Source of the DNA: Gammaproteobacteria bacterium
GTDB lineage: Bacteria > Pseudomonadota > Gammaproteobacteria > Pseudomonadales > Azotimanducaceae
DNA: 64,000 bases
NCBI GenBank assembly: GCA_026705345.1
Contig: JAPPAV010000073.1
Location: 1-64,000, forward strand
Direction: 5' to 3'
Part shown: positions 22,604 through 59,849 of the stretch, in pieces
How the letters are laid out: each line of letters opens with the position of its first letter
Numbering within the stretch: position 1 is the first letter of the stretch
Notes under the pieces: model-generated
What the model was told of the DNA's origin: nothing
The model's input: only the letters and a program-made list of their open reading frames with translations
Databases searched by the model: none
Made by a program: the position numbers and the translations under genes

Positions 22604-22609
22604 CCTTGC

Positions 22610-39557: not shown

Positions 39558-42500
39558 ATGACAGACAACGCGCCAAAGAGCATCTTCGCGATCTTCGCGC
39601 TGGGTGCGTGGTGTGCCGGCGCGGAGCCTCGAATCGAGTCCTTCTCGCCGAGCGGCTACACGAAGGATGCAAGCCAGGTCGCGGTCCGCTTTTCCGAGCC
39701 AATGGTCGCGCTCGGCGACCCCGACACGACGGACCCGTTCGCGATGGCGTGCGATGTGCCCGGCAACGGCCGCTGGATCGACGAACGCCACTGGGTCTAC
39801 GACTTCGCCTACGACGTCCCCGGTGCGGAACGTTGCCGCTTCACGCTGCGCCGCAGGGTCCGGACGCTGGCCGGAGAACCGGTTAGCGGCGCGCGCGAGT
39901 ACTCCTTTCACACCGGGGGGCCGGGCATCATCGACGAGCCCCTGGCAAGTACCGACAGATGGCACCCGCGGATCGACGAGCGTCAAGTGTTCCTGCTGGC
40001 GCTCGATGCCGACGTCGACGCCGGCTCGATCCGCCGACACGGCTACTGCCGGACCCAGCGGGAGCGACACATCGCCGTGGATGTTGTCACCGGCGCGGAA
40101 CGCGATGCGATTCTCGACGCGCTGCCGGCAAGGTTCGTCAGCGGACTCGTGGAGTCCGCTAGTACGCATTTGCCGCGGGGCGATGGCGCGACGCTCCGGA
40201 ATCGGGCCCTACGGCGCATCGTGGCAGTCCGCTGCATGGAGACGCTGTCGGCCGGCGCCAGAGTCCGACTAGTCTGGGGTGCGGGAGTGGCCAGCCCAGA
40301 CGGCGTCGTCAATCCGACCGCCGAGAGTCACTTCTTCCGCGTCCGTCCAGCATTCACGGCGCGGCCAATCTGCTCAGCGCGCCTCGACGGCACCTGCGTA
40401 GGCTCGATCCGGGTCGCGTTCTCCGCAATGGTGGAACGCGAGGTCGCGGGGCGCGTTCGCCTCGTGGACGCCGGAGGCGTCGAATTGCCCACTGTCGTTG
40501 CGGATGCACTGCATGTCGAGCAGGTGGAATTCGAGGGGACCATCGCCGAGGCCAGTTCCTACCAAGTGAAACTTACCGGGCCATTGGTGGACATCGACGG
40601 CCGAGGGCTGGCCAACGAGGCCGACTTCCCCCTGGCTGTCGAGACCGGCACGCCTCCCACGCACGGCACGTTCGGCCACGGAATGATCATCGTGCCACCC
40701 GGTCCGGACGCCTCGGCGCCGGGCCTTTTCTACCGTCCCCCGCGAACTCTGCATGGACGTCGGCTTGCGGTTACCGACGAAAAAGACCTTAGCCGTTGGC
40801 TTCAGCAGATCGAGGACGCCCGCGAACGACAGAGTCGCTGGGGCGGCCGCGAGACGCCGCTCCTCGGGGAGGATGAGCCGGGGACGGCTCCGTTTGAATT
40901 GGCGTTCCACGAACAAGACGCTGCCTTTCAAACCGCCGACGTGCCGCTGGCCGGTCAAGGGCTGCAAATCCTGGAGCTCGTGCTGCCGCCCACGACGTCC
41001 ATACCCGAACCCCGCTACGTCCTCGGCAAGGCCATCGCCACCCGTCTCGACGTGCACTTCAAGCTCGGTCGCGAGTCGTCGCTGGTCTGGGTGACCAGTC
41101 TCGCCGACGGTCGACCGGTCGCCGACGCCGAATTGGCGATCACGGATGGCTGCACGGGAGCTTCCCTCTGGCGCGACCGCAGCGACCCGGACGGGTTGGG
41201 CCGGGTTTCCATTGCCCTACCAACCATCGAGGGCTGTTCACGCCCCCACTACCTCGCCTCGGCCCGCAAGGATGCCGACTACGGGTTCGTCGCCCTCCCG
41301 ACCGAGCATTGGCAGTACGAGGAGGGAAACCGTTCGCTCAAGGGCCACACCATCGTCGACCGCTCCCTGTTCCAGCCGGGCGAGACCGTATCCATGAAAC
41401 ACATCGTCCGATTGGCAACAGCCGACGGCTTCGCGTTGCCCGACCCCTCGATGAGATCTGGTCAATTGTCGATCCGCCACGAGACCCGGGGCGAGGTGCA
41501 TAGCAAGGCCGTCGATCTCGACGCGAACGGAACGGCCACCAGCACGTTCGAGCTACCCGAGACTGCGTCGCTTGGCCACTACGACATCGCGCTACGCGTC
41601 GCCGAAACGGACCTGACGACCGCTCGATTCCGGGTTGAACGGTTCCGCGTCGCCACGCTTCGCGCGAAAGTCACGACGCCGGTCGAGCCGATCATCGCCC
41701 CGTCGTCCATACCGCTCGACCTGGACGTACAGCATCTTTCCGGAGGCGGTGTCTCGAAACTACCCGTGACGGTGCGGACTGCCTTCCACCGATCGCACAA
41801 CGATGACTTCGGGGATCGCGGGACACCTGCGCGCAGCGAAACCCGTACCGTCAGGGAGACGTTGGACGGGTCCGGGAAGGCACGCCTGGAAGTCGGGGAC
41901 GTGCCCGAATCCCAGGATCGCGTCTCGCTGCGGGTGGAGATGGACTACCGGGACAACAACGGCCAGATTAGGACGGCATCGAACCGGATCAGCATCTGGC
42001 CAGCGGCATTTCGACTCAGAGTCAATGTCGGCGGTTTCGCGACTTCGCAAGCCGGCGACCCGGTGGCTGGATCGTCGCCGCAGCCCGTCGCCCGTATTCG
42101 GGCCCTCGACACGGCGGGATCGCCTGTCGCCGGGATTGCCGTCGAAGCCGACTTCGTGATGGGTACCAACTACTCGCTGGACGAGCGACTGCCCGGCGGC
42201 TTTCGTGATCTCCGCTCAATGAGGGACCGGCAAGTGGAAGGCACCTGTTCGGGAGTCACGGACGCCGACGGCACCTTGGCGTGCCGCATTCCCGCGCACC
42301 TGACCGAGTTCGAAGAGCACACCAGCGGCGGTTCCGTGCACGCCGTGGTACGGGCAACCGCACGCGACGAACGGGGACGCACCACTCGTACGTCGGCTCG
42401 AATCTATCCGAGGCGTCGCGATGGCATCCTCAGCGTCGAGGGCGACCGCGCGTTCGCTCCCGGCGAAACCGTACCGATCCGGCTGTCCGTTCCGTTCGGG

Positions 42501-45146
42501 CAGGCGAACGCCTTGGTGAGCGTCGAGCGTGAAGGCGTCTTGGACGCGTTCGTCGTGCAGTTGAGCGGACCGCGAACCATCAACCTGCCGGTACTCCCGA
42601 ACTACGCACCGAATATCCAGGTCTCCGCATTGGCCATCGCGACCGCGGAACCGAATACCGGGGGCGGATTGCCGAGCACACTTGAAACGATTGGCAACCG
42701 GGCGCGAGTGGACCTGGCGTCGCGGCTGCCCGACAAGGCGAGCGGCAGCATCCCGATCCGGGTGGGCAAGGCGGCAAACACGCTCCATGTCGGGGTGGAA
42801 ACCGATCGGGACTCGTACCGAACACGGGACAACGCGCGTGTCCGGGTCACCGTTGAAGACCCCGACAAACGACCGGTTCGGGACGCCGAACTCGCCCTTT
42901 ACGCCGTCGACGAGGGCCTGCTCGAGATTTGGCCCAACCGGTCCGCCAACATGCTCGACAGGATGCTCTTGCAACGCGCTATCGACGTTTCGTCACGGAG
43001 CGGTTCTGACGCGACGAGCGAGTCACTGTCGCTGCACAGCGTGGCGGAGGAGGGGCGTATCGGCCCCGGCTACTATCTGCCCCGCGGCGGGCCGGGCATT
43101 TGGTTTACTGTCTCTACGGGGGCTGGTCCCCGCCCCATCGCCAACGCATTTCGCCGGGAACACTTCGATCCGCTGCTGGTGTGGCGGGGACGACTCGCAG
43201 TGGATGACAACGGCAACGCCGAGATCGACATCCCGTTGAACGACCTCGTGACGTCCTTCCGTATCGTCGCGATCGCCACCGCCGGCGCCCACCTGTTCGG
43301 CACCGGCGAAGCCACGATCCGCACCACCCAGGATCTCGTCCTGCACGACGCCTTGCCGCCCGTCGTCCGGGAGGGAGACTCCTTCCACGCAGCTTTCACC
43401 GTGCGCAATGCGTCCGATGTCCCTCAACGCCTCGAGGTGACCGCCCAAGCCGAAGGTCTGCCCAAGCTCAGGCCACGTACGTTAACCCTTCCGGCCAACG
43501 CCTCGGACGAGGTCTCTTGGCGGGTTAGGGTACCCGCTGGCGTCGGTGGACTGGACTGGGACGTGAGCGCTCGGTCGGATTCCGCGAACGATCGCCTGGG
43601 AACGCGCCAGACCGTAGAGCCCGAAGTGTCCGTTCGCGTCCAGCAGGCAACGCTCGTGCACCTCGATCGGCAATTGGACTTCCCCGTGGCACCGCCCGCC
43701 AACGCGCTACCCGACCGGGGAGGCGTGGCCGTGTCGTTGCAGCCAAGCATCGCCGGGGGCCTCGGCACCATGCGCGAATACATGGCCGAGCTTCCCCACA
43801 CCTCCTTGGAGCGGCGCGTGTCCGCCGCCGTCGCGCTCAACGACGCCGAAAGGTGGTCGGCGGTGACTGCAAACCTCGAAACATGGATGGACGAGGACGG
43901 GTTGCTGAGGTTCTTTCCGAGCGACCGTCTGGCCGGATCGCCCGTGCTAACCGCCTACGTGCTCGCAATGGCGGATGCCAACGGTTGGACGGTGCCGGAA
44001 CATCCTCGCGCCCAACTACTCTCGGGCCTCCAACGCTACCTCGGCAACGAGATTGTCCGGCACGAACCGTTCCCGCGTGCCCCGCCGAGCTTGGCGCGAC
44101 TCAGCGCACTCGCCGCCCTTGCACGCCACGGCGGCGTCGAGCCCGACATGCTCATCGACTTCGAACCCAACCTCGAGTTGCTCCCCACCTCGTCGCTCAT
44201 GGATTGGATCGACACCCTCCAACGCGTGGTTCCCTCGCACCCGGACCTGGCCACCGCCAAGGCCATCCTGCGGTCGCGGCTGAACCTGCAGGGGACGTCG
44301 CTCGCCTTCTCCACCGAGGACCGGGACAGGCTCTGGTGGCTCATGGTGTCCACCGACGGCAACGCCGCCCGTGCCATCGCGACGCTCCTCGGGGATCCCG
44401 ATTGGCATGCCGATATGCCACGCATGATGCGGGGTCTGGTCGGACGCCAACAGCGCGGTCGTTGGGACACTACCGTGGCCAACGCCTGGGGGGCGGTGGC
44501 GACGGCCCGGTTTGCCGCAGCATTCGAGAATTCACCCGTGTCGGGTACCAGCCTGGTGGAGATGGGCGCGGAGAAGCACCGGCCGGTATGGCAGCCTACC
44601 GGCCCGCCCGCCCGGGTCGATATGCCCTGGGCCGCCGGGAATACGTTGACCCTCCGCCACGAAGGCGCCGGTGCGCCTTGGGGTTTCGTGGAGTTGCGCG
44701 CGGCCGTGCCCCTGCGCGTAGCCGTGTCGCGCGGCTACCGCATCGCGAGAACCGTGGAGGCCGAGGGGAAGAGACGCCGCGGCTGGCGGCGTGGCGACAT
44801 CGCGCATGTCGAGCTGGCAATCGATGCCGACCGCGATATGACCTGGGTCGTGGTCGAGGACGCCCTGCCGCCCGGCGCCGTCGTTCTCGGCAGCGGCCTT
44901 GGCGGCGACGCGGCCATGCTCGAGGACAGCTACCAACGGGGCGACCGGTGGCCCGTGTTCACGGAACGCGGGTTCGACAGCTACCGGGCGTATTTCCGCT
45001 ACGTTCCCAAGGGAAGAACCACCCTGCGCTACAGCGTCCGGTACAACACCGCCGGCACGTTCCGATTGCCGCCGACCCGGGTGGAAGCCATGTACGCACC
45101 GGAAGTGTACGCCGAGCAGCCGATCGCACCTCTCACCATCCGCTGA
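39558..45146 (+). CDS. bacterial alpha-2-macroglobulin family protein, paralog 1 (thioester lost)
   Basis: The 1862-residue secreted protein has a signal peptide (cut near CAGA-EPRI), no clear lipobox, and repeated MG-type beta domains from IESFSPSGYTKDASQVAVRFSE onward. A variable interval at about 1135-1205 (bait candidate) precedes the WRGRLAVDDNGNAEIDIPLND and FGTGEATIRTTQDLVL segments. A helical thioester domain and a C-terminal domain with YFRYVPKGRTTLRY follow. At the thioester site, where relatives read CxEQ, it has HTSLER: Ser1416 replaces Cys and Arg replaces Gln. It cannot form the Cys-Gln bond. It may trap proteases without covalent capture. It directly follows the acyltransferase gene. 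Confidence 0.92.
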   Translation: MTDNAPKSIFAIFALGAWCAGAEPRIESFSPSGYTKDASQVAVRFSEPMVALGDPDTTDPFAMACDVPGNGRWIDERHWVYDFAYDVPGAERCRFTLRRRVRTLAGEPVSGAREYSFHTGGPGIIDEPLASTDRWHPRIDERQVFLLALDADVDAGSIRRHGYCRTQRERHIAVDVVTGAERDAILDALPARFVSGLVESASTHLPRGDGATLRNRALRRIVAVRCMETLSAGARVRLVWGAGVASPDGVVNPTAESHFFRVRPAFTARPICSARLDGTCVGSIRVAFSAMVEREVAGRVRLVDAGGVELPTVVADALHVEQVEFEGTIAEASSYQVKLTGPLVDIDGRGLANEADFPLAVETGTPPTHGTFGHGMIIVPPGPDASAPGLFYRPPRTLHGRRLAVTDEKDLSRWLQQIEDARERQSRWGGRETPLLGEDEPGTAPFELAFHEQDAAFQTADVPLAGQGLQILELVLPPTTSIPEPRYVLGKAIATRLDVHFKLGRESSLVWVTSLADGRPVADAELAITDGCTGASLWRDRSDPDGLGRVSIALPTIEGCSRPHYLASARKDADYGFVALPTEHWQYEEGNRSLKGHTIVDRSLFQPGETVSMKHIVRLATADGFALPDPSMRSGQLSIRHETRGEVHSKAVDLDANGTATSTFELPETASLGHYDIALRVAETDLTTARFRVERFRVATLRAKVTTPVEPIIAPSSIPLDLDVQHLSGGGVSKLPVTVRTAFHRSHNDDFGDRGTPARSETRTVRETLDGSGKARLEVGDVPESQDRVSLRVEMDYRDNNGQIRTASNRISIWPAAFRLRVNVGGFATSQAGDPVAGSSPQPVARIRALDTAGSPVAGIAVEADFVMGTNYSLDERLPGGFRDLRSMRDRQVEGTCSGVTDADGTLACRIPAHLTEFEEHTSGGSVHAVVRATARDERGRTTRTSARIYPRRRDGILSVEGDRAFAPGETVPIRLSVPFGQANALVSVEREGVLDAFVVQLSGPRTINLPVLPNYAPNIQVSALAIATAEPNTGGGLPSTLETIGNRARVDLASRLPDKASGSIPIRVGKAANTLHVGVETDRDSYRTRDNARVRVTVEDPDKRPVRDAELALYAVDEGLLEIWPNRSANMLDRMLLQRAIDVSSRSGSDATSESLSLHSVAEEGRIGPGYYLPRGGPGIWFTVSTGAGPRPIANAFRREHFDPLLVWRGRLAVDDNGNAEIDIPLNDLVTSFRIVAIATAGAHLFGTGEATIRTTQDLVLHDALPPVVREGDSFHAAFTVRNASDVPQRLEVTAQAEGLPKLRPRTLTLPANASDEVSWRVRVPAGVGGLDWDVSARSDSANDRLGTRQTVEPEVSVRVQQATLVHLDRQLDFPVAPPANALPDRGGVAVSLQPSIAGGLGTMREYMAELPHTSLERRVSAAVALNDAERWSAVTANLETWMDEDGLLRFFPSDRLAGSPVLTAYVLAMADANGWTVPEHPRAQLLSGLQRYLGNEIVRHEPFPRAPPSLARLSALAALARHGGVEPDMLIDFEPNLELLPTSSLMDWIDTLQRVVPSHPDLATAKAILRSRLNLQGTSLAFSTEDRDRLWWLMVSTDGNAARAIATLLGDPDWHADMPRMMRGLVGRQQRGRWDTTVANAWGAVATARFAAAFENSPVSGTSLVEMGAEKHRPVWQPTGPPARVDMPWAAGNTLTLRHEGAGAPWGFVELRAAVPLRVAVSRGYRIARTVEAEGKRRRGWRRGDIAHVELAIDADRDMTWVVVEDALPPGAVVLGSGLGGDAAMLEDSYQRGDRWPVFTERGFDSYRAYFRYVPKGRTTLRYSVRYNTAGTFRLPPTRVEAMYAPEVYAEQPIAPLTIR

Positions 45147-45192: not shown

Positions 45193-46266
45193 CTACGAAG
45201 GCGCGCCTGTGCGTACCGCGACAGACTTGATGAGCGCCTGTACGCCAATCCCCGCTGCGAGCGCCAGTTCGTCCACCGAGCGCCGTGTGACGCGCGCAAG
45301 GAGGAACTGATCGCCGCACCGCACGCGCGCCAGCGCCGAGTCGCCCTGGTCGTCGATCGCATCGACGATGCCATCGACGCGGTTGAGGATGCTCATCCGG
45401 TCGATGGGAGTCGTCGCCAGGCTGACGTCCCGGGCCGGAATGTGGAGAAGGATGCGCGGGCCTGCGGCGGACAGATCCCCGCGCACATACAGCGAAGACG
45501 TGCCTAAAACCAGTTCAGACAGCCGATAGCGCGGATCGTAGGCCTTGAACCGGCAGCTGACCACCGCGCCTGCTTCGTCCCCCAGGGAGGGCGTCGTGAA
45601 CGACGTGGAAAACTCCCCCACCGAGTCCACCCGCGACACCTCGCCATCGACAGCCACCATGACCTGGTCGGCCATGGTCAGCACCTCTGCCAAGGTGTGG
45701 GACACGTAGATGATGGGTACGTCGTGGCGACGGCACAGGCGCGCAAGGTAGGGCGCGATTTCGCGTCTAGACGCCGAATCCAGGGCCGACATCGGCTCGT
45801 CGAACAGCCAGAGCTTGGCCGGTGACAGCAGCGTCCGTCCGAGCGCAACGCGTTGACGCTGACCGCCCGAGAGTTCCCGGGGGTATTGACCCAGAAGCGG
45901 CGCCAAGTCCAGGAAGTCCACGACCTCATCGAATCCGAGACGTACACCTGGCCGTCTGGCATGCGCCGCGAAGGTCAGGTTGCTGCGCGCGTCTAGGTGC
46001 GGAAACAACCGGGCTTCCTGGAATACCGTACCGACCGGACGACGGTGCGCGGCGAGGGTCGGGGAAGCGCCTTGCCAAGTGTCCCCATCGACCTCGACGG
46101 TCACGACCGCGTCGGGCTCGAACCCGGCGACCACACGGAGCAGCGTCGACTTGCCGGAACCGGAAACGCCCACCAGGGCCGCGACCCCATCGAGGTCCAC
46201 GTCGAGGTCCGCCCGCAACCGGAATCCGGTGTCGCGGACCAACTCGCCGTTTACCTTGAGCCTCAT
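45193..46266 (-). CDS. modC: molybdate ABC transporter ATP-binding protein ModC
   Basis: The 357-residue ATPase has Walker A GVSGSGKSTLL, Q-loop PVGTVFQEARLFPHLDA, signature ELSGGQRQRVALGRTLL, Walker B LWLFDEPMSALD and H-loop YVSHTLAEVL. A C-terminal extension of about 130 residues includes a MOP-like molybdate-binding stretch (SILNRVDGIVDAIDD, ALARVRCGDQFLLARVT). This is the standard ModC layout. ATG 46266 overlaps the modB stop by 4 bp. Longer upstream reading is modB in the wrong frame. The gene ends 46 bp from the convergent macroglobulin gene. Confidence 0.92.
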   Translation of the reverse strand: MRLKVNGELVRDTGFRLRADLDVDLDGVAALVGVSGSGKSTLLRVVAGFEPDAVVTVEVDGDTWQGASPTLAAHRRPVGTVFQEARLFPHLDARSNLTFAAHARRPGVRLGFDEVVDFLDLAPLLGQYPRELSGGQRQRVALGRTLLSPAKLWLFDEPMSALDSASRREIAPYLARLCRRHDVPIIYVSHTLAEVLTMADQVMVAVDGEVSRVDSVGEFSTSFTTPSLGDEAGAVVSCRFKAYDPRYRLSELVLGTSSLYVRGDLSAAGPRILLHIPARDVSLATTPIDRMSILNRVDGIVDAIDDQGDSALARVRCGDQFLLARVTRRSVDELALAAGIGVQALIKSVAVRTGAPS

Positions 46267-46931
46267 GGAACGCGCAGCCAACGATAGGTGAACGTCAACA
46301 CCACCAGCGAGAACACGAGCAGCGAAGCGGCGATTACATGCGCACCGACGTAGTCCAGCATCTCGACCCGGTCGAACAGCGCGATGGACAACACGCGGGT
46401 CTCGCCCGGAATGTTGCCGCCGATCATGAGCACGATGCCGAACTCGCCCACCGTGTGCGCGAATCCAAGTACGCCGGCTGCAACGAGGGCCTTCTTGTGC
46501 ATCGGGAGAACCAAGCGCAGGAACCGGGTTGCCGGGGCGACCCCTAGACTGGCGGCAGCTTCCAGCAGATGGCCGTCCGTTGTGCGGAACGCCGACGCCA
46601 AGGGTCCGGTAACGAACGGCAAGGAGTAGATGATCGAACCGATCACCAACCCGGTGAAGGTGAAGGCAAGCGGTGCACCCGCGAGGGCCTCGGCGATCGC
46701 GCCCAGAGGCCCGCTCGGCGCCATGGCAAGCAGCAGGTAGAAGCCCAACACCGTCGGCGGCAACACCAGTGGCAGCGCAACCAGGGCTTCCACCGGGGCC
46801 CGCCACTTGGAACGCGTTCGGGCAATCCACCAGGACAGCGGCGGCGAGGCGAGGAGCAGAATCGCCGTGGTGGTCGCCGCAAGCAGTCCCGTCACCCACG
46901 CCGCCTGCACGATGTCAGCAGTTGCCGCCAC
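46263..46931 (-). CDS. modB: molybdate ABC transporter permease ModB
   Basis: The 222-residue permease has five to six membrane segments and the family's LPLVLPPTVLGFYLLLAM and LPFVTGPLASAFRT segments. The cytoplasmic EAA-type loop reads LLEAAASLGVAPATRFLRLV, which docks on ModC. The start is a GTG at 46931 that shares a base with the modA stop (TAGTG). It is coupled to modC by an ATGA overlap. Uptake of molybdate for molybdoenzymes is the expected role. Confidence 0.93.
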   Translation of the reverse strand: MAATADIVQAAWVTGLLAATTTAILLLASPPLSWWIARTRSKWRAPVEALVALPLVLPPTVLGFYLLLAMAPSGPLGAIAEALAGAPLAFTFTGLVIGSIIYSLPFVTGPLASAFRTTDGHLLEAAASLGVAPATRFLRLVLPMHKKALVAAGVLGFAHTVGEFGIVLMIGGNIPGETRVLSIALFDRVEMLDYVGAHVIAASLLVFSLVVLTFTYRWLRVP

Positions 46932-47629
46932 TACCGGTAGCCGGCTTTCCGGATCAGGTGACGCGCCCGTTCGCTGCCGAGATAGTCCATGAACTCCTGG
47001 GCAGCCCGTTCATTGGGACCGGCGACGACAACCCCAACCTGCTCGATAGGCGTGTACAGATGCTCCGGAACCAGCCAATAGCGCTCGGGGGAGATGTCCT
47101 GGGCCACGACCTGGGCCATCGCCGCGAACGCGCCATCCACCGCGCCACTGGCCGCGAAGTGGAACGCCTGGGCAACGTTTAGGGCATTGACCCGTTTCGA
47201 CTCGGCACCCAGGCGGCGGATGGTCTCCAGCGCCGCACGGCCGTACGGCGCGGTCTCGGGATTGGCCAATGCCACGCGCTTGTCGGCTGCGAGCCAGTCC
47301 ACTCCAGGTTCGCCGTGGTTGACAACCAGCACCAGTCGTCCGGTCGCGTAGTTGAACGGCGAATGTGCCCTCTCTTGGTCCACCAGGGATCTAGGCCGGG
47401 CGGCGTCGGCGGACAGGAAGACGTCGAACCTGCGCCCTTGGACGAGTTGTGCATAGAGCAGGCCCGATGAGCCGTAGGTGGCCGCGACCTCGCCGGGAAA
47501 GTCCGCCTTGAGACTCGCCAGCGCGCTCTGGAAGTTCGACGCGACGGCGAGTTGCAGCGGCTCGCCGGCACCCGTCGGCGTCCACGCCATTGCGATGCCC
47601 GCGAGTATTCGAGTCAGCCAGCGTCCCAT
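46931..47629 (-). CDS. modA: molybdate-binding periplasmic protein ModA
   Basis: The 232-residue precursor has a signal peptide (WLTRILAGIAMAWTPTGAGE), then LQLAVASNFQSALASLKADF, where the Ser after ASNF-type loops binds oxyanions, and ATYGSSGLLYAQLVQG for the second loop. Further family strands are DVFLSADAARPRSLV and YATGRLVLVVNHGEPGVDW. These match ModA/WtpA-type substrate-binding proteins. ATG 47629 was preferred to the upstream ATG at 47680 because it puts a normal signal peptide first. First gene of modABC. Confidence 0.9.
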   Translation of the reverse strand: MGRWLTRILAGIAMAWTPTGAGEPLQLAVASNFQSALASLKADFPGEVAATYGSSGLLYAQLVQGRRFDVFLSADAARPRSLVDQERAHSPFNYATGRLVLVVNHGEPGVDWLAADKRVALANPETAPYGRAALETIRRLGAESKRVNALNVAQAFHFAASGAVDGAFAAMAQVVAQDISPERYWLVPEHLYTPIEQVGVVVAGPNERAAQEFMDYLGSERARHLIRKAGYR

Positions 47630-47700
47630 CCGGTGACTCTGCCAGCGCCAATCGGCTAACGCAAAAAGCCGCCAACGCAAGAGACCGGCAGCCTCCCGGG

Positions 47701-47997
47701 CTACCGCCCGCCTTGCGAGCGTTCAAGGGCGCGTTCGAAACTCACCAGGCGGCGAATCAGCGAGTTGTAGCGGGCATGGGAATCCTCGACCCCGGACCGT
47801 CCGATGGCTTCGTAGAGGGCATGTTCAGGTTCCGCGGGCCATCCAGGCGCTTCGGGCACCGACAAGCCGGCGGCGCGCAGACGGCGTGCGCCGACCGCGA
47901 CCAGAAGTGCTTCGACAGTGAACTCCCCCCGTTGCAGATCGTCGATTCCCAGTGCGACCAGTTCCGCGCCGGGGAGTTCGTCCGGAACGCGGGTCAT
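47701..47997 (-). CDS. small protein coupled to a nucleotidyltransferase-like gene
   Basis: The 98-residue soluble protein begins MTRVPDELPGAELVALGIDDL and has a helical HAL/YEAIG region and a terminal LIRRLVSFERALERSQGG. I do not recognise the family with certainty. Its ATG overlaps the stop of the nucleotidyltransferase-like gene by 4 bp, so they are co-translated. This two-gene arrangement recalls toxin-antitoxin-like nucleotidyltransferase pairs, but no toxicity motif can be assigned. modA starts 71 bp further on and may share the transcript. Confidence 0.55.
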   Translation of the reverse strand: MTRVPDELPGAELVALGIDDLQRGEFTVEALLVAVGARRLRAAGLSVPEAPGWPAEPEHALYEAIGRSGVEDSHARYNSLIRRLVSFERALERSQGGR

Positions 47998-51700: not shown

Positions 51701-54259
51701 GTCGAGGTCTCCGTATTGGCCATCCGTCCCCGCGTCCAACCCGCTGTTCGGCTCGAGACGCAGCCCGTGGTGCCCGACCCGCGTCGCCCCGATTCGTGGT
51801 ACGGAACGTCGCGGTCGTCTGGGCCTCGGGATTTCACCCTGTCCACTACCGACGGGCCCGACTACCGCCTCGAGACCGTGGATGTGCGCGTGGCCCTGGA
51901 TAGGCACACCCTGTCCGTGAACGTCGAGCCCGATCGGGACGTCTACCGCACCCGGGATCGGGCCCGGGTGCGAATCACGGTCCTGGGACCTGACGGACGC
52001 CCACGCCCCGGCACCGAGGTCGCCTTGGTCGCGGTGGACGAGGGATTGTTGGAGCTCAAGGCCAACCAAACCTGGGACATCCTCAAGGCCATGATGGCCG
52101 AGCGCTATGCCTGGCTCGATACGTCGACCGGCATGCAGCGGCTGCCACGAACGTTCGATCTAGGCCCGGACACCGAGACCGTGATCGTGACCGGCTCCTA
52201 TGTGCGCAACTCCGGTTTCGATGTGGAACCCGTGGAGGACAGTCCCGCGATGCGCGAGCGTTTCGACTCGCTGCTGCTGTGGCGCGGGCGCGTGGCGATG
52301 GACGGCGAGGGCACCGCCGAGGCCGAAATCCCCTTGAACGACCTCCTGACGTCGTTCCGCATCGTCGCGGTCGCCACGGCCGGGGAAGACCTGTTCGGCA
52401 CCGGCGAGGCAACGATTCGAACCACCCAGGATCTCATCGCCCACCCCGGCCTGCCCGAAGTGGTCCGGGAGGGCGATCGGTTCGACGCGGTGTTCACCGT
52501 GCGCAACGCCTCGGAGACGGCCAGAAGGATCAGCGTGACGGCCCGGGCCGAGGGGCTTCCCAAGCTGCGAGAGAAACGTCTGAGGCTGCGGCCCGGCCAG
52601 ATGCGCGAAGTGTCCTGGCCGGTCACGGTTCCCGCCGGCGTCGACGGCATCGACTGGGAATTCGTGGCGACGGCTAGGCTCGCCGCCGACCGACTGGCCG
52701 CACGACAGACGGTTCATCCCGCCGTGCCGGTTCGGGTTCAACAGGCAACGTTGACGCAACTGGCCGCACCCCGGGAACTGCCGGTCGAAGCGCCGGACAA
52801 TGCGCTGCCGGGTCGAGGGGGCATCAGGGTCTCTCTGCTGCCAAGCCTGGCCGACAATCTCGCCTCCGTCCGCGAGGCGATGGCCCGCTACCGCTACAGT
52901 TGCGTGGAGCAGGTGGTCTCGGCCGCAGTCGTCCTGGACGACGAGGCGCGTTGGTCGGCGGCGATGGAGTCCGCCCGGGCGTCCCTGGACGACGACGGCC
53001 TGCTGCGGTTCTTTCCCAGTGCGGCACTGCAGGGCTCCCCGGTCCTGACGGCCTACGTCCTGACCATCGCCGATGCGGCAGGGAAATCCATTCCCGACGA
53101 CCTCCGGGAATCGATGGTCGAAGGTCTAGAGGGCTACCTTGCCAAGCGTGTCGTCCGCAACGGCGTGTTCCCGGCGGCAGATTCGCACGTGCGCCAATTG
53201 ACCGCGCTGGCCGCCTTGGCGCGATACGGCCCGGTCGATCACGCGATGCTCGATCAGATGGAAGTCAATGCCGAGACGCTACCCACCTCCGGGCTCCTGG
53301 ATTGGATCGACATCCTGGTCCGCGTGCTTCCCGAAGATGAACGGTTGACCGTGGCGAAGGACGTGCTGCGGATACGAATGAACCTGCAGGGAACAACCAT
53401 GGGATTCTCGACGGAGCGCCGGGACCGGCTGTGGTGGCTGATGGTCGCGCCGGACGGCAACGCCGCGCGCGCGATCCTCTCGGTGCTCGACGACCCGGAT
53501 TGGCGCCCCGAGGTGCCGCGCATGGTGCGCGGTCTGTTCGGACGCCAGGTTCGGGGGCGCTGGCAGACCACCGTCGCGAATGCCTGGGGCTCGGTCGCGG
53601 CAGGCGCCTACCGGGCGGCTTTCGAAGCCGGGCCGGTCACGGGTGCGAGCACCGTACGATTGGGCGAAGTGCACCAGCAGGCCCTCTGGCCTGGCCCCGG
53701 GGATGCCGTCGCGTTACCCGAGCCAATCGAACTGCCCTGGTCTGCGGCCCAAACCCTGGCACTGTCCCACCAGGGCACGGGAGCCCCTTGGGGCACGGTC
53801 GAACTCCGTGCCGCGGTGCCATTGACCGAACCCGCCGAACGCGGCTACCGAATCGTCCGGCACCTGAACGCCGTGGAGCGAAAGAACGCCCGCCGATGGT
53901 CACGGGGCGACGTCGCCCAAGTCGTCCTGGAGATCGATGCCGACGCCGATATGACCTGGGTGGTCGTGGAGGATCCGCTGCCGCCTGGCGCCGTCGTGCT
54001 CGGCAGCGGCCTCGGCGGCGACTCCTCGATCCTCTCGGCGACCCATGTACGCGGCGACCGCTGGCCCGTGTTCACCGAGCGCGACTTCGACAGCTACCGG
54101 GCCTACTACCGCTACGTGCCGAAAGGTCGTACGACCTTGCGCTACAACGTCCGCTACAACACGGCAGGCACCTTCCAACTGCCGCCCACCCGGATCGAGG
54201 CGATGTACGCGCCGGAGATGCATGCCGAACTGCCGATCGAGGTCGTGGCGATCCGGTGA
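48725..54259 (+). CDS. bacterial alpha-2-macroglobulin family protein, paralog 2 (intact thioester)
   Basis: The 1844-residue secreted protein has an N-terminal signal (LLFALSCLIAGWAWPGA) and the same order of MG-type domains as paralog 1, starting VEMFSPTGYAKDVRQVGVRF. The bait candidate, about residues 1120-1180, is unlike those of its neighbours and contains DTETVIVTGSYVRNS. The thioester motif is intact: YRYSCVEQVVS with Cys1393 (codon at 52901). Cleavage of the bait by a protease should expose the Cys-Gln thioester to trap the attacker covalently. No lipobox is clear, so it is probably periplasmic or secreted. It is 16 bp upstream of paralog 3. Confidence 0.94.
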   Translation: MVKPTDVSRALLFALSCLIAGWAWPGAQVEMFSPTGYAKDVRQVGVRFSEAMVALGDPGRLDPFSVDCEVPGNGRWIDERNWVYDFDYDVPGAVRCGFQLRNDVRTLAGERIHAPPEYAFHSGGPAIVGREPHGGADERQVFMLALDAVADPDSIREHVRCRIKGSDATRPIDLVKGSERSKILDALQAAGTHYVGELVESASRHLPAADEHETRIRALERIEMARCRNPLPPGSDVELIWGAGVAALNGMATTRERSVSFSVRPDFRALLECTDRFEDRCVGGIHIRFTAPVSRELAAGIRLLDEDGAIVPAEMDDGPHVGRIDYPKAFEDQTSYRAELVAPITDVDGRALANASSFPATLQFGRLPPGASFGRGIRVVERDAGALAPVLLRRVEEPLSGRRLRVAEDSEIVEWVRRVWRMPDAEGDEWVGSASGRSAFEAVESGAAFTFSPGSADHPYRVAGVPLAGPGFHVVELELPAAGSLPRRYVAGLIVVTDLAVHLHRAKESSVVWVTGLSDGKPVEGADIAIVDSCTGETVARAATDPDGLATLPGTLPWSETCGRLVTARKDGELAVAYGSRRHRELRPTVVAHAVLDRAIFQPGETVSMKLVVRLGTSEGLVVPPGLPSKVKVSIEQYWTDERHEASVDLDEDGTAQASFDLPSSARLGWYTVDLEFNGRKHRVGDIRVERFRVGTMRAAILGPEGPLVNTGTVPITLSLEHLAGGGAASVPVSVRTTVRPWFYHWERREPQEPRTASATLDSRGTAEIDVPLPRLERKGLLDLEMDYQDANGQRKTASKRIEVWPAAIDLTVQQDDTRLEDRRILVKAVGLDGTAATGVPVEASIRYPPYYDDARLPGGFRSYRRDSESRLIATCSGHTDASGSLGCTVPPEAPDAVLVEATGWDENGNTTRTARTTGYWSHAPRDEWLEVEAERTFAVGETVPITLDLPFAEATVLTTVHREGVLAAFVERVTGPQAVINVPVRHNYAPNVEVSVLAIRPRVQPAVRLETQPVVPDPRRPDSWYGTSRSSGPRDFTLSTTDGPDYRLETVDVRVALDRHTLSVNVEPDRDVYRTRDRARVRITVLGPDGRPRPGTEVALVAVDEGLLELKANQTWDILKAMMAERYAWLDTSTGMQRLPRTFDLGPDTETVIVTGSYVRNSGFDVEPVEDSPAMRERFDSLLLWRGRVAMDGEGTAEAEIPLNDLLTSFRIVAVATAGEDLFGTGEATIRTTQDLIAHPGLPEVVREGDRFDAVFTVRNASETARRISVTARAEGLPKLREKRLRLRPGQMREVSWPVTVPAGVDGIDWEFVATARLAADRLAARQTVHPAVPVRVQQATLTQLAAPRELPVEAPDNALPGRGGIRVSLLPSLADNLASVREAMARYRYSCVEQVVSAAVVLDDEARWSAAMESARASLDDDGLLRFFPSAALQGSPVLTAYVLTIADAAGKSIPDDLRESMVEGLEGYLAKRVVRNGVFPAADSHVRQLTALAALARYGPVDHAMLDQMEVNAETLPTSGLLDWIDILVRVLPEDERLTVAKDVLRIRMNLQGTTMGFSTERRDRLWWLMVAPDGNAARAILSVLDDPDWRPEVPRMVRGLFGRQVRGRWQTTVANAWGSVAAGAYRAAFEAGPVTGASTVRLGEVHQQALWPGPGDAVALPEPIELPWSAAQTLALSHQGTGAPWGTVELRAAVPLTEPAERGYRIVRHLNAVERKNARRWSRGDVAQVVLEIDADADMTWVVVEDPLPPGAVVLGSGLGGDSSILSATHVRGDRWPVFTERDFDSYRAYYRYVPKGRTTLRYNVRYNTAGTFQLPPTRIEAMYAPEMHAELPIEVVAIR

Positions 54260-54275
54260 CGGACCGGAGGGAACA

Positions 54276-57200
54276 GTGAACCGGGCCTCATCCGCCGCGC
54301 GCCCTCCGCTCCTCGCGGTGGTCGCGCTCGGTGCAAACCTGGTCGGTGCCGAAGCCCGGATCGAGTCGTTCTCGCCGACCGGCTATACGAAGGACGCAAC
54401 CCAGGTCGCGGTCCGTTTTTCCGAAGCCATGGTCGCCCTGGGCGACCCCGAGATATCGGACCCGTTCGCCATCCGGTGCGCCGTCCCGGGTACCGGGCGC
54501 TGGATCGACGAGCGGAACTGGGTGTACGACTTCGACTACGACGTGCCCGGTGCCGAATCGTGTCGCTTCACGCTGCGCCGCGGTGTCCGGTCCCTCGCCG
54601 GCGAACGTGTCGCCGGTCCACGCGAACATCGGTTCCACACCGGCGGCCCCAGCATCCTTCGCCATGCGCCGGACGCGACGATCGACGAACGGCAGGTCTT
54701 TCTGCTCGCCCTCGATGCCGACGCGGACCCCGATTCCATCCGCGATCATGTCGGCTGCCGGGTGGAGGGCCGCGGGAACGTCGGCGTCGCCTTGGTAGAG
54801 GGCGAGGCCCGGACCGAGATCCTCGATGCCTTGGCGAAGCATAGCCGTTACACCCTCGACGGGCTGATTCGCGAGGCAGGCAAGCACCTGCCGCCGGCCG
54901 AGTCAGACGCAGGGCGGACACGCGCACTACAGCGGATCGTGGCCCTGCGTTGCAGGGAGGATCTTCCCGGGGGCGCCACCGTCAATCTGATGTGGGGGTC
55001 GAACGTCGCCGCACACAACGACGTCACCGGCGAGTCGGACCAGATCCTAGCCTTCAAAGTGACCGCTTTCCGGGCGAACGTCCACTACGAATACCACGAC
55101 GGGGTCCTACCCCTGCCCATGTACATCTGGTTCAGCTCGCCGGTGGCGCGCGAGTTCGCCAATCGCTTCCGCATCGTCGATTCCGCTGGCCGAACCGTGC
55201 CCGGGCAGTTCCAAGGAGACGCCGAGATCCGGCGCATAGACTTTCCGGGACCTTTCCGCGAGGACAGCGACTACCGCCTCGAGCTGACTGGACCGATCCA
55301 CGACATCGATGGCCGGCCGCTGGCGAATGCATCGAGCTTCCCTCGGCGACTCCGAACGTCGCGTTTGCCGCCCGGGATTACCTTCGGCGGACGGCTGCGC
55401 GTCGTGGAGGCGTTGGACCCGATCGGCGTGCCGGTGCTCGTGCGGCGGCCGAGCGATCCCCGCATCGTCGTGCGGCGAATGCGGGCGGAAGACGACGCCG
55501 AGCTACTGGCCTGGCTGCGACGAATCAACGCGCACATGCGTGACCCGGCGCGCCACGCCGAGGGATGGCCCGGCGCCGATGAGTCGATATTCGAGCCCGA
55601 CGCGCCCACGGAGGGATTCGACCTACCTCTCGCCGACTTCGATGCTCCGTTCCAGATCGTCCCGGTTCCGCTACCCGGGAGCGGCTTTCACGTTGTCGAG
55701 GTGGCCCTGCCCTGGGAGCAGGATGTCCACGGGGGTCGTTACGTCTCGGCCGGCGTGCTCGCGACCGGTCTTGGCGTGCATTTCCTGCACGGACGCACAT
55801 CCTCCATCGTGTGGGTCACCAAACTCTCCGACGCTTCGCCCGTCCCCGACGCCGCGATCCGCATCACCGACCCCTGCAGCGGCCGACGGCTGTGGCTCGG
55901 CCGCACCAACGCGAGCGGCATCGCCACGGTTGCCCAATCGCTGCCCGCGGACGAGGACTGTCCCGACTTCCGGGGCGCATTCCTGGTCTCGGCACGGACG
56001 CCGACCGACTTCGGCTACGTGATCGGCGACGGTCGGCGCTACGACGGTGCGACGGCGTTGCGGGTGCACACGATCCTCGACCGCTCGCTGTTCCAACCCG
56101 GCCAGACGGTCTCCATGAAGCATGTCCTTAGGCAGGCAACGCCCGATGGACTCGCCCTGCCTCCCGGCCTCCCGGCGGCGATGGAAGTCGCGATCGAGCA
56201 TGCCGGCACCGGCGAGACCCATTCCGAGACCATCGACGTGGACGAGACGGGGACGGCGCTCGGCACCTTCCAGTTGCCGAAGGAAGCCTCGCTGGGCTAC
56301 TACACGATCGAAGTTCGGCTCGGCGAACAACGGCGGCCGAGCGGCCAGTTCCGTGTCGAGAACTTCAAGGCCCAGACGATGCGGGCAACCGTCGACGGAC
56401 CCACCAGGCCACTTGTCCGACCCGCGTCGGTACCCCTCACGCTGTCGGTGAAGCACCTCGCGGGCGGCGGCGCCGCCCTCCAGGAGATCGACGTTCGTGT
56501 CCACCGATACGCCCCCGGGCACCCGGGGGAACCAGTGACGCAGGTCGCAGCGGTCACCTTGGACGAGAACGGCGAAACCGCCTTTGTCGTCGAAGACCTT
56601 GGACGGCCGGACACGCACACGATCTTTGTCGTGGAGTTCGACTACGCCGACGCCAACGGCCAGATCGCCACCGCATCGGGACATTTCGAGCTTTGGCCGG
56701 CAGCGCTCCGGCTTCGGATCGAAGGCGTGACAAACGCGCCATCAGGCGCTCGTGCTCTGCGCATCGCGGCCTTGGACCTCGACGGCCAGCCCCTCGGCGG
56801 TCAAGAGGTGCAGGCAAGCCTGTTCTCCCTCGTCGAGGAACGTCACCAGAAGCGCCTGCCCGGGGGATTCCGCGCCTCGTCCTACGTGAGTGATCGGAAA
56901 CACGAGGCCGATTGCTCCGGTAGAACCGACACAGACGGCATTCTCGAATGCGCAATACCGCCGCATCTCGACGGGACCGTCGAGGTGGAAGCCGTCGCCC
57001 TCGACGAGGATGGCAACGCCGCCAAGGCAAAGGACTGGATCTTGCCCGACAGCGACTTCCTCGAAACGGATGAATACAAGCTCCACCTGCCAGGCGAGCG
57101 TGCAACCATTGCCCTCGATTCGCCCTTCGCCAACGCGACGGCCCTGGTGTCCGTCCATGGCCACGGCGTGCTCGATGCATTCGTGACCGAACTCGACGGA

Positions 57201-59849
57201 CCCCGGGCCGTGGTCGAGATTCCGATCCGGCACGGCTACGCGTCGGAAGTCACCGTGTCGGTACTCGCCGTCCGGGGACGGGCGGCCGGGACCAAGCCGC
57301 CGTGGTCGCGTCCCGGCGGCGAGGTATTCACCGAAGTGCACGGCAAACTGGCGTCCTACCATTCCCTCGGTCCCGGTGGACCGGACGCCCGGCACGGCAT
57401 CGTCTCGATTCGAATCGCCAACGACACCCACCGCCTGACCGTCAACGTCGAGCCCGAACGGGCCACCTACGCCATCCGTGAAGACGTGCGCGTGGGCATC
57501 CGCGTAATGGACCCCGCCGGCGTTCCGGCGTCGAACGCCGAAGTCGCCCTCGTCGCGATCAACGAAGGCCTGGCCGATCTCTGGCCCAACCGGTCATGGG
57601 ACATCCTGGACAAGATCCTGCGCCAGCCGTACTACGACGAATTGGTGACTACGAACGGACTCCGCGAACTCAGGCAGGCTTTGGCCGTGCGGTCCCTCGC
57701 CGGTGGAAGCGACCTCGGGGACTACCCGGCAGTACCTGAGCTACCTGACGATCTTGGCGATATGATCTTCGATCAAACCTTCCAGGTTGGCGTCAACGCC
57801 GAAGCCGCCCCTGACTCTGCGCCGGAGACGAATCTCCGCCATCGCCTGGAGGATCTCCTGCTCTGGCGCGGCCGCGTCGCCTTGGACAAGGACGGCGCGA
57901 CCGAGGTGGTCATACCTCTCAACGACCTGGTGACGTCGTTCCGCATCGTCGCGATCGCCACGGCAGGCGCCGATCTCTTCGGGACCGGCGAAGCGACGAT
58001 CCGCACCACGCGCGATCTCGTGCTCCAAGCCGGACTGCCGCCGAGGGTGCGCGAAGGGGACCGCTTCGACGCCACGTTCTCGGTGCGAAACGCCACCGGG
58101 GCCGAGCAAACGGTGGATGTCGTCGCCAAAGCCGAGGGCCTGCCGAAGCTCAGGCGACAATCGGTAGTGTTGCCCGCAGGCGTGTCCAAGGACGTGACTT
58201 GGCCCGTAGTCGTGCCAGCCGACGTCGATCACCTGGCGTGGGATGTGACCGCCGTCTCCGAAGCCGCCAGCGATCGTCTCGCCGCCCGACAGATGGTCGT
58301 TCCGCTCGTACCCGTCCGGGTTCAGCAAGCGACCCTCGGCCAACTCGGCTCGCCGTTGCAGTGGTCCGTCAAACCACCCCGGCGGGCGGAGCGAGGTCGG
58401 GGAGGCGCATCCGTATCGTTTCGCCCAACCATCCTCGGCGGCCTGGATACGATGCGGGAGGTGATGGCGCGCTACCGGTTTACCTGCCTGGAGCAGAAAG
58501 TCTCCGTCGCGGTCGCGCTGGGCGATCCAGCACGGTGGTCGGCGCTTATGGCCACCCTCGCGAACTCGATGGACCGAGACGGACTCTTGAGATTCTTTCC
58601 AACCGACCGACTTTACGGTTCGCCCGTCTTGACTGCCTATGTCCTCGCCATTGCCGACGCTTCCGGCAGGAGCCTACCCGAGGCGTATCGCGGGCGGATG
58701 ATCCGAGGTCTCGCCCGCTACCTCGAAGACGAGATCAAGCGCGACAACGATTTCCCCGGCACTACAGGGATCCTGGTCCGGCTCAGCGTACTCGCCGCGC
58801 TCGCGCGCCATGGCGCTGCCGACGCGGAACTGCTCGACGGCTTCGATCTCGACCTCGAACTGCTACCCACCTCGGCGCTGCTCGACTGGATCGACATCCT
58901 GGACCGGGTGGCGCCGGAACGGGCGCAACTGACCACGGCGAAGCGCCTGCTCCGGTCCCGTCTGAACCTTCAGGGCACGACCCTCGGCTTCTCGACCGAA
59001 CACCGGGACCGGCTCTGGTGGCTGATGGTCTCAACCGACGTCAACGCCGCCCGCGCCGTCGCGACATTCGTCGACGAGGACGATTGGCGCCCCGACATGC
59101 CACGCATGGTGCGGGGCTTGTTCGGACGTCAGGTTTACGGCCGCTGGGAGACCACCGTGGCGAACGCCTGGGGCGCCGTGGCCACGGCACGGTTCGCCGA
59201 CGTGTTCGAGGCGGATCCGGTATCGGGGACGACCGTGGTGAACGCCGGTCAAGCGCAACACCGCTTTCAGTGGCCCGACGGCGATGCCGGAACCATCGGC
59301 GGCCTCCCTTCGCCAATCGAGATTCCCTGGTCCGGGGCGGAAACACTCGCGCTACGCCACGAAGGCAAGGGCGCGCCCTGGGCACTCGTTGAACTGCGTG
59401 CGGCCGTTCCCGTTCGCCGCGCCGTTCGTCGCGGCTACCGCATCACGCGAACCGTGAATCCGGTGGTGAACGAGGCGCCGCGCGGGTGGCATCGGGGCGA
59501 ACTTGCCGAGGTGATTGTCGAGGTCGATGCCGATGCCGACATGACCTGGGTCGTCATCGAAGACCCGCTTCCGCCCGGTGCCGTTGTCCTCGGCAGCGGT
59601 CTCGGCACCGACTCGTCGATCCTTGCCTCACGGATTCGTTGGAACGACCGTTGGCCCGTGTTCACGGAACGAGGCTTCGACAGCTACCGGGCCTACTACC
59701 GCTACGTACCCAAGGGCACCTTCACGCTGCGCTACAACGTCCGCTACAACACGGCAGGCACTTTCCAGCTGCCGCCCGCCCGCGTCGAGGCGATGTACGC
59801 GCCGGAGATGCATGCGCAACTGCCGGTCAAGCCCGTCACGATTCGCTAG
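54276..59849 (+). CDS. bacterial alpha-2-macroglobulin family protein, paralog 3 (intact thioester)
   Basis: The 1857-residue product starts at a GTG (54276) seven bases after GGAGGG. The signal peptide spans LLAVVALGANLVGAEA, followed by RIESFSPTGYTKDATQVAVR as in paralog 1. The bait candidate is near residues 1110-1191 and is rich in Asp, Pro and Leu (VPELPDDLGDMIFDQ). The thioester motif reads YRFTCLEQKVS, Cys1404 (codon 58485). The C-terminal domain ends in YRYVPKGTFTLRYNVRYNTA and YAPEMHAQLP. It is co-transcribed with paralog 2 (16-bp gap) and ends 4 bp from the convergent comF-like gene. Confidence 0.94.
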   Translation: MNRASSAARPPLLAVVALGANLVGAEARIESFSPTGYTKDATQVAVRFSEAMVALGDPEISDPFAIRCAVPGTGRWIDERNWVYDFDYDVPGAESCRFTLRRGVRSLAGERVAGPREHRFHTGGPSILRHAPDATIDERQVFLLALDADADPDSIRDHVGCRVEGRGNVGVALVEGEARTEILDALAKHSRYTLDGLIREAGKHLPPAESDAGRTRALQRIVALRCREDLPGGATVNLMWGSNVAAHNDVTGESDQILAFKVTAFRANVHYEYHDGVLPLPMYIWFSSPVAREFANRFRIVDSAGRTVPGQFQGDAEIRRIDFPGPFREDSDYRLELTGPIHDIDGRPLANASSFPRRLRTSRLPPGITFGGRLRVVEALDPIGVPVLVRRPSDPRIVVRRMRAEDDAELLAWLRRINAHMRDPARHAEGWPGADESIFEPDAPTEGFDLPLADFDAPFQIVPVPLPGSGFHVVEVALPWEQDVHGGRYVSAGVLATGLGVHFLHGRTSSIVWVTKLSDASPVPDAAIRITDPCSGRRLWLGRTNASGIATVAQSLPADEDCPDFRGAFLVSARTPTDFGYVIGDGRRYDGATALRVHTILDRSLFQPGQTVSMKHVLRQATPDGLALPPGLPAAMEVAIEHAGTGETHSETIDVDETGTALGTFQLPKEASLGYYTIEVRLGEQRRPSGQFRVENFKAQTMRATVDGPTRPLVRPASVPLTLSVKHLAGGGAALQEIDVRVHRYAPGHPGEPVTQVAAVTLDENGETAFVVEDLGRPDTHTIFVVEFDYADANGQIATASGHFELWPAALRLRIEGVTNAPSGARALRIAALDLDGQPLGGQEVQASLFSLVEERHQKRLPGGFRASSYVSDRKHEADCSGRTDTDGILECAIPPHLDGTVEVEAVALDEDGNAAKAKDWILPDSDFLETDEYKLHLPGERATIALDSPFANATALVSVHGHGVLDAFVTELDGPRAVVEIPIRHGYASEVTVSVLAVRGRAAGTKPPWSRPGGEVFTEVHGKLASYHSLGPGGPDARHGIVSIRIANDTHRLTVNVEPERATYAIREDVRVGIRVMDPAGVPASNAEVALVAINEGLADLWPNRSWDILDKILRQPYYDELVTTNGLRELRQALAVRSLAGGSDLGDYPAVPELPDDLGDMIFDQTFQVGVNAEAAPDSAPETNLRHRLEDLLLWRGRVALDKDGATEVVIPLNDLVTSFRIVAIATAGADLFGTGEATIRTTRDLVLQAGLPPRVREGDRFDATFSVRNATGAEQTVDVVAKAEGLPKLRRQSVVLPAGVSKDVTWPVVVPADVDHLAWDVTAVSEAASDRLAARQMVVPLVPVRVQQATLGQLGSPLQWSVKPPRRAERGRGGASVSFRPTILGGLDTMREVMARYRFTCLEQKVSVAVALGDPARWSALMATLANSMDRDGLLRFFPTDRLYGSPVLTAYVLAIADASGRSLPEAYRGRMIRGLARYLEDEIKRDNDFPGTTGILVRLSVLAALARHGAADAELLDGFDLDLELLPTSALLDWIDILDRVAPERAQLTTAKRLLRSRLNLQGTTLGFSTEHRDRLWWLMVSTDVNAARAVATFVDEDDWRPDMPRMVRGLFGRQVYGRWETTVANAWGAVATARFADVFEADPVSGTTVVNAGQAQHRFQWPDGDAGTIGGLPSPIEIPWSGAETLALRHEGKGAPWALVELRAAVPVRRAVRRGYRITRTVNPVVNEAPRGWHRGELAEVIVEVDADADMTWVVIEDPLPPGAVVLGSGLGTDSSILASRIRWNDRWPVFTERGFDSYRAYYRYVPKGTFTLRYNVRYNTAGTFQLPPARVEAMYAPEMHAQLPVKPVTIR

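What the first reader, a model, noticed from the sequence alone, without database searches (positions are those of the whole stretch)
39558..59849. Three-copy alpha-2-macroglobulin array in which one member has lost its thioester
Paralogs 2 and 3 keep CVEQ (Cys1393) and CLEQ (Cys1404), while paralog 1 reads S-L-E-R at the same place, losing both Cys and Gln. All three share domain order and C-terminal sequence. Bacterial macroglobulins usually occur once beside pbpC or in a yfaS-type locus; here there is no PBP1C in the window and three near-full-length copies lie within 20 kb. A division of labour between covalent and non-covalent protease traps is a reasonable inference, as is a regulatory or scaffold role for the thioester-less copy.
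Basis: partly seen in the sequence, partly recalled or inferred. Interest (0 to 1): 0.75.

Follow-up and report, generated by a model that had tools for sequence, protein, structure and literature searches.

The report
Thioester-less member of macroglobulin gene set
A bacterium related to sponge-associated bacteria carries several big protease-trap genes, and one of them has lost the chemical hook that locks onto proteases while the rest of the protein seems to have stayed under selection, which makes it a probable non-covalent trap of a broadly known kind.

Summary
Three intact alpha-2-macroglobulin genes (MG-A, MG-B, MG-C) lie at 39558-59849; MG-A reads SLER where MG-B and MG-C read CVEQ and CLEQ. 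It is not one array: a reverse-strand modABC operon separates MG-A from the MG-B/MG-C pair, and MG-A's nearest kin is a fourth copy on contig C99 (CFEQ). A fifth, pbpC-linked copy (CAEQ) lies on C21.

CxEQ was read in 34 of 34 other related copies; SLER only in MG-A and its orthologue in one congener, G002. The loss is focused on the thioester block (3 of 4 otherwise invariant residues against 12 of 220 elsewhere). MG-A's dN/dS against G002 (0.29) lies between MG-C (0.27) and MG-B (0.38); its frame is open.

Against broad maintenance: G002's MG-A is broken by deletions, as are its MG-B and MG-C; two congeners have no gene at that site.

Best reading: a Type-I-derived thioester-less macroglobulin, probably a non-covalent trap working like MagD (Type II), apparently of separate descent. 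New variant of a known kind.

The parts
39558..45146 (+). MG-A: alpha-2-macroglobulin, 1862 aa, thioester-less
43803..43814 (+). S1416-L-E-R1419 in place of CxEQ; the tyrosine at -4 (1412) is Leu
42636..42776 (+). MG-A presumed bait loop, residues 1027-1073 (limits set by me from the alignment)
48725..54259 (+). MG-B: alpha-2-macroglobulin, 1844 aa, CVEQ
52901..52912 (+). CVEQ thioester motif of MG-B
51725..51904 (+). MG-B presumed bait loop, residues 1001-1060 (limits set by me), fast-evolving
54276..59849 (+). MG-C: alpha-2-macroglobulin, 1857 aa, CLEQ; 16 bases between the MG-B stop and its start
58485..58496 (+). CLEQ thioester motif of MG-C
38426..39553 (+). acyltransferase (PF01553), 4 bases between its stop and MG-A; likely co-transcribed (inferred)
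45193..46257 (-). modC-like ABC ATPase with TOBE domain, between MG-A and MG-B
46263..46931 (-). modB-like permease
46931..47641 (-). modA-like binding protein (SBP_bac_11)
47994..48536 (-). DUF6036 nucleotidyltransferase-like gene

Best explanation
MG-A is a maintained, exported (periplasmic) macroglobulin derived from thioester-bearing (Type I) ancestors that lost its covalent hook before the lines of G000 and G002 split. It most likely still works as a bait-triggered trap: a protease cuts the bait loop, the MG ring and TED domain rearrange, and the protease is held or hindered without a covalent bond, as reported for MagD. The CxEQ copies MG-B, MG-C, C99 and C21 would do the covalent trapping. 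Shown here: the sequence loss, its sharing with G002, change focused on the thioester block, a pattern of purifying selection, a helical TED in the model, and an open frame. Inferred: export, bait cutting, non-covalent holding and division of labour.
For: SLER is shared with G002. CxEQ was read in 34 of 34 other related copies, among them four Burkholderiales copies that I take as outgroup, so the loss is derived. Leave-one-out test: in MG-A 3 of the 4 otherwise invariant residues of the thioester block 1411-1420 (Y1412L, C1416S, Q1419R; E1418 kept) changed, against 12 of 220 elsewhere (tail probability about 0.0009, my arithmetic; block chosen by me because of the claim). dN/dS against G002: MG-A 0.29 (640 of 1862 codons), MG-B 0.38 (894 of 1844), MG-C 0.27 (215 of 1857). 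Changes polarised with C99: own branch 32 synonymous and 31 nonsynonymous, G002 branch 30 and 32, 70 unresolved. 0 of 2400 simulated neutral runs over six settings stayed free of stops. The TED is modelled as a helical domain (10-residue blocks mostly 80-96 pLDDT, dips to 60; whole model mean 75.7, pTM 0.59), and the top five PDB matches are E. coli and Salmonella A2M (TM-scores by query length 0.34-0.43, rmsd 15-18, so domain placement does not agree). MagD without CxEQ retains a protease non-covalently (PMC5764988).
Against: The only other orthologue found (G002) is broken by large deletions, and G003 and G009 have no gene between acyltransferase and modC, so maintenance rests on one lineage and on comparison with a broken gene over a third of its codons. 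Outside the thioester block MG-A still changes 12 of 220 otherwise invariant residues, more than six of the seven other rows tested, MG-C alone being higher. MG-A's dN/dS is at the upper edge of the neighbours' range (0.08-0.28). Monomeric human A2ML1 is said to depend on covalent binding (opening of the abstract of PMC9156758, listing), so losing the thioester could mean losing inhibition. Three Pfam families that I recall as mag partners are absent from this genome. Expression, export and bait cleavage were not tested.
Confidence: 0.5

Rival explanations
1. MG-A is maintained but no longer a trap: it has become a non-inhibitory scaffold, decoy or partner of the CxEQ copies, as C5 and Mcr did among animal relatives.
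For: The thioester block is altered as a unit (tyrosine at -4, the usual aromatic at -2, Cys, Gln) while most of the scaffold stays constrained. MG-A's presumed bait loop is not accelerated against G002 (dN 0.061 versus 0.079 elsewhere), whereas MG-B's is in three comparisons (0.158 v 0.088, 0.225 v 0.092, 0.624 v 0.203), which would fit a changed role. Mcr and C5 lack the thioester and act otherwise (PMC12254109, passages).
Against: The MG-A bait comparison is one pair with 6 nonsynonymous changes in 47 codons and low local dS (0.17). The MG-A bait-region Pfam domain still scores over cut-off. No partner was identified.
Confidence: 0.25
2. MG-A is at an early stage of decay: the thioester went first and the gene is on the way out, as the macroglobulins of G002 and G003 already are.
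For: G002's MG-A lacks stretches of about 760 and 500 bases, and its MG-B and MG-C are cut too. G003's MG-B has a large frame-breaking deletion. Outside the thioester block MG-A has more changes at otherwise invariant sites than six of the seven other rows.
Against: MG-A's dN/dS lies between those of MG-C and MG-B and its two branches look alike; the 1862-codon frame is intact. MG-C, with its thioester, has more changes at otherwise invariant sites (23 of 230 against 15 of 224). In G002 the orthologues of the CxEQ copies decay too, so decay is not tied to thioester loss.
Confidence: 0.2
3. MG-A still bonds covalently by another route, for example through Ser1416.
For: Serine is a nucleophile at the Cys position (sequence).
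Against: No acyl donor: Gln is Arg, and the tyrosine at -4 is lost. I know of no chemistry of this kind (recalled).
Confidence: 0.03

Closest known systems
Type I bacterial A2M (E. coli ECAM/YfhM, Salmonella SaA2M)
   Same: Domain families bMG3, MG2, A2M, bMG10, and the bait domain in MG-A and MG-B; the profile of the CUB-TED-C-terminal region aligns to SaA2M with the motif at the same place; top fold matches
   Different: MG-A lacks CxEQ and the tyrosine at -4; none of the three is beside pbpC; no clear lipobox by eye
Type II bacterial A2M (P. aeruginosa MagD; E. coli YfaS, the latter recalled)
   Same: No CxEQ; MagD still traps a protease non-covalently (PMC5764988)
   Different: MG-A's nearest kin in the tree are CxEQ proteins, it is not in a mag operon, and three families recalled as mag partners are missing from the genome
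Complement C5 and Drosophila Mcr
   Same: Thioester-less members of families in which other members keep the thioester (PMC12254109, passages)
   Different: Animal proteins with signalling or lytic roles; no such role is known to me in bacteria

Membership tests
Bacterial alpha-2-macroglobulin superfamily | bMG3, MG2, bait-region, A2M and bMG10 domains in order | tested here: met
   for MG-A and MG-B; the bait-region model is not reported for MG-C
Bacterial alpha-2-macroglobulin superfamily | Helical TED between CUB and C-terminal MG domains | tested here: met
   predicted for MG-A only
Type I (thioester) A2M | CxEQ motif | tested here: not met
   MG-A has SLER; MG-B and MG-C meet it
Type I (thioester) A2M | Adjacent pbpC (frequent, not universal) | tested here: not met
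   neighbours; met by the C21 copy
Type II A2M (MagD/YfaS) | Absence of CxEQ | tested here: met
Type II A2M (MagD/YfaS) | mag operon partners (DUF2300, DUF1175, DUF2135; their assignment to mag/yfa genes is recalled) | tested here: not met
   no match in the own genome for any of the three; E. coli control positive each time
Type II A2M (MagD/YfaS) | Common descent with MagD/YfaS | tested here: inconclusive
   the tree puts MG-A among CxEQ proteins, but no MagD or YfaS sequence was included
Type II A2M (MagD/YfaS) | Non-covalent protease trapping | not testable with these tools
   needs bench work

The most novel reading that the evidence does not exclude
A thioester-less macroglobulin arose in bacteria from Type I ancestors, independently of Type II, and was kept as a specialised partner or non-covalent trap beside four copies with the thioester motif, giving one cell a mixed set much as animals have C3 and A2M beside C5, or TEPs beside Mcr.
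Probability: 0.35. Interest if true: 0.6.

Novelty: new variant of a known kind. Interest (0 to 1): 0.45.

Why it matters
Bacterial macroglobulins are sorted into a covalent and a non-covalent type. A focused loss of the thioester in a gene whose close kin keep it offers a natural comparison of what the thioester is needed for in a bacterial macroglobulin, in a lineage whose relatives come from sponge metagenomes (inferred from record names), that is, from animals with proteases of their own.

Tried and rejected
Sequencing error: rejected, since G002's separate assembly has the same motif. Three-copy tandem duplication: rejected by the intervening mod operon and the tree. MG-A as a mag-type locus: partner families not found. 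Assembly artefact for the G002 deletions: not excluded. L077 and L078 hold no N, neighbouring genes in these contigs show no long deletion, and the junctions overlap by 0-3 bases (one has 2 extra bases); but another G002 contig (C460 = L079/L048) bears a coverage of only 6.3 in its title. NCBIfam gave no match for five proteins. The motif scan was mis-set and found nothing; one search repeated it. The first motif pattern printed nothing useful; one search replaced it.

Rows dropped or unread. The 'G003 MGC' line is MG-B cross-mapping and is not used; acyltransferase and MBL had no coverage in G002 there. G002's MG-B and MG-C thioester stretches are deleted and C460 has none, so G002 contributes one reading. 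Loci L046, L047 and L084 do not reach the site. The class rows L106, L107, L112, L113 and one of two L095 pieces have no reading; L095 is counted by its other piece. The distant copies of G004, G006, G007, G008, G012, G013 and of the other bMG10 carriers were not read at the site. The G002 TED piece was left out of the tree, and G001's C225 entered with its C-terminal piece only.

Literature. Six paper searches. Opened: PMC5764988 (parts 1 and 2 of 6), PMC4498604, PMC3328433, PMC6697440, PMC12254109 and PMC8163846 (passages only). PMC9156758 was seen as a listing with the opening of its abstract. No title or abstract opening listed concerned a thioester-less paralogue within a Type I bacterial set; PMC6697440 does mention an A2M-repeat protein in a sponge-associated thaumarchaeon. 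This library lacks most subscription papers, so absence is weak evidence.

Full report
What is there. The + strand carries three intact macroglobulin genes: MG-A (39558-45146), MG-B (48725-54259) and MG-C (54276-59849). All three have Pfam bMG3, MG2, A2M and bMG10 over cut-off in the same order; the bait-region model is over cut-off in MG-A and MG-B and is not reported for MG-C. The thioester site is SLER in MG-A (S1416), CVEQ in MG-B (C1393) and CLEQ in MG-C (C1404).

Layout. Four bases part the stop of an acyltransferase gene from the MG-A start. Between MG-A and MG-B lie modC-, modB- and modA-like genes on the - strand and a DUF6036 gene. MG-B and MG-C are a true tandem pair, 16 bases apart. 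The genome (G000, 151 contigs) holds five A2M-domain matches: these three, one on C99 with a hemA-like and an ammonium-transporter gene nearby, and one on C21 followed directly by pbpC. The C99 copy reads CFEQ and the C21 copy CAEQ (its translation).

Where the family occurs. With P0001, 8 of 38 genomes (own included) matched at E<=0.001: the own genome, 6 of 15 congeners, and one weak match (2.2e-5) elsewhere in the order. With a seven-row alignment, 12 of 16 genus genomes (own included) matched; 7 of them hold a close copy, and in the other 5 only a distant copy matched, presumably the pbpC type (not checked). The scan of named genomes gave 10 loci: MAGs RHO1_bin_53, SB0662_bin_58, 277c_34 (two loci) and COS4_bin_45, and the Burkholderiales Cupriavidus gilardii, two Lampropedia, Janthinobacterium and one MAG. 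RHO and COS would fit Rhopaloeides odorabile and Coscinoderma matthewsi, two sponges of a large MAG study (PMC8163846, passages); that the window's organism is a sponge symbiont is my inference.

Evolution of the locus. In G003 and G009 the acyltransferase is followed directly by modC (gaps of about 30 and 155 bases). Macroglobulins sit between mod and comF in G003, G009 and G011, and next to comF in G001. Tree of the C-terminal part, 15 rows, 761 columns, midpoint root, 10 of 12 inner branches well supported: MG-B with G003 and G011; MG-A sister to C99 plus G001_C1 (98/97); MG-C next to these three (97/97). MG-A's branch (0.37) is like those leading to C99 (0.17+0.17) and MG-C (0.44). So MG-A is not a tandem duplicate of MG-B. 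Whether it was inserted beside the acyltransferase in the G000/G002 line or lost elsewhere was not resolved.

How unusual is the loss. CxEQ was read in 34 of 34 other related copies: own MG-B, MG-C and C99; G011, G009 twice, G001 twice, G003 and G008; Cupriavidus, Janthinobacterium and two Lampropedia; and 20 loci from a sample of 369 class genomes (7 of this subfamily, 13 of a CWEQ group). SLER was found only in MG-A and its G002 orthologue. Copies that could not be read are listed under Tried and rejected.

Is MG-A maintained. Leave-one-out comparison at otherwise invariant positions: MG-A 15 of 224 changed; MG-C 23 of 230; G008 10 of 185; MG-B 8 of 217; G009_2 7 of 215; C99 6 of 215; G011 6 of 215; G009_1 5 of 214. 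MG-A is thus second highest of eight. Rows with an orthologue in the set (MG-B, C99, G011, the G009 pair) are counted low, because changes that they share are not scored; MG-C and G008 are the fairer yardsticks, and MG-A lies between or near them. In the thioester block 3 of 4 changed, elsewhere 12 of 220; over the whole TED MG-A has 4 of 51, as many as G009_2. SaA2M has the same tyrosine in the aligned motif YPYGCLEQ, and PDB 4u4j is its Y1175G mutant. dN/dS against G002 was 0.29 for MG-A, 0.38 for MG-B, 0.27 for MG-C, and 0.08-0.28 for six neighbours. Polarised counts were alike on both branches. In simulations of neutral change at 0.06-0.13 changes per site, 0 of 2400 runs stayed free of stops. 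The comparison covers only 640 of 1862 codons, and its partner is a broken gene.

Results against maintenance. G002 keeps the locus order, but all three genes are cut there. MG-A pieces match window 41946-42953, 43456-43977 and 44742-45146, the alignment ending 96 bases before the contig end. MG-B and MG-C lack 48640-49231 (with the MG-B start), 50040-50704, 51955-53620, 54396-58556 and 58862-59621. The mod, comF and M23 genes show no long deletion, though DUF6036 has one stop. The mapped macroglobulin codons hold no stop, while one C565 match and two C460 matches run across one. G003's MG-B has a frame-breaking deletion. So macroglobulins are dispensable in some congeners, thioester or not. 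Low coverage of at least one G002 contig leaves some doubt about its assembly.

Bait loops. With limits that I set from the alignment, MG-B's loop changes faster than the rest in three comparisons (dN 0.158 v 0.088 with G002; 0.225 v 0.092 with G003; 0.624 v 0.203 with G011), MG-A's does not (0.061 v 0.079 with G002). MG-A rests on one pair with 6 nonsynonymous changes. dS in the loop is also raised for MG-B with G002 (0.36 v 0.23) and G011 (1.10 v 0.73) and lowered for MG-A (0.17 v 0.29), and dS varies strongly along these genes, so local recombination may confound this.

Structure. AlphaFold2 on MG-A residues 1200-1862 with 14 rows gave mean pLDDT 75.7 and pTM 0.59, with a helical TED of good confidence. 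Foldseek's top five matches are E. coli and Salmonella A2M, followed by C3, C5, A2ML1 and other members of the superfamily. Domain placement is not reliable.

Mechanism. MagD, a thioester-less macroglobulin, is cut in its bait and keeps the protease non-covalently (PMC5764988, parts 1 and 2 of 6). The best reading is that MG-A works like that, beside covalent paralogues. I do not file it as Type II: its nearest kin are CxEQ proteins and the families recalled as mag partners were not found, though no MagD or YfaS sequence was in the tree. Against: A2ML1, a monomer, is said to depend on covalent binding (abstract opening). A non-inhibitory role as in C5 or Mcr (PMC12254109, passages) remains a serious rival.

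Novelty. Thioester-less macroglobulins are known in bacteria and animals. What seems new, as far as the listings show, is a focused loss within a Type-I-derived bacterial set of five copies. New variant of a known kind, interest 0.45.

Noticed in passing
L077, L078 (G002 contigs C161, C565): All three macroglobulin genes of the syntenic locus are cut by long deletions while the neighbouring mod, comF and M23 genes are not; mapped codons carry no stops, so the decay looks recent, if it is not an assembly artefact.
   Followed up: partly
L081:7048-10693 (G003): MG-B orthologue with a deletion of about 630 codons that breaks the frame.
   Followed up: partly
51725-51904: The presumed bait loop of MG-B has 1.8 to 3 times the dN of the rest of the protein in three comparisons, as if in an arms race with proteases.
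   Followed up: partly
L009:1460-9846 (G000 contig C21): A2M with CAEQ followed at once by pbpC in the same genome.
   Followed up: yes
39558-54259: dS against G002 varies from 0.03 to 0.53 along MG-A and MG-B, lowest at the 3' ends, which hints at recombination or gene conversion.
   Followed up: no
L041:4341-15256 (G009): Tandem pair of CxEQ macroglobulins between mod and comF; the two are each other's nearest in the tree.
   Followed up: partly
10863-12215, 16365-17753, 19701-21173, 21245-22654: Long open frames with no Pfam match at E<=0.001; some may not be genes.
   Followed up: no
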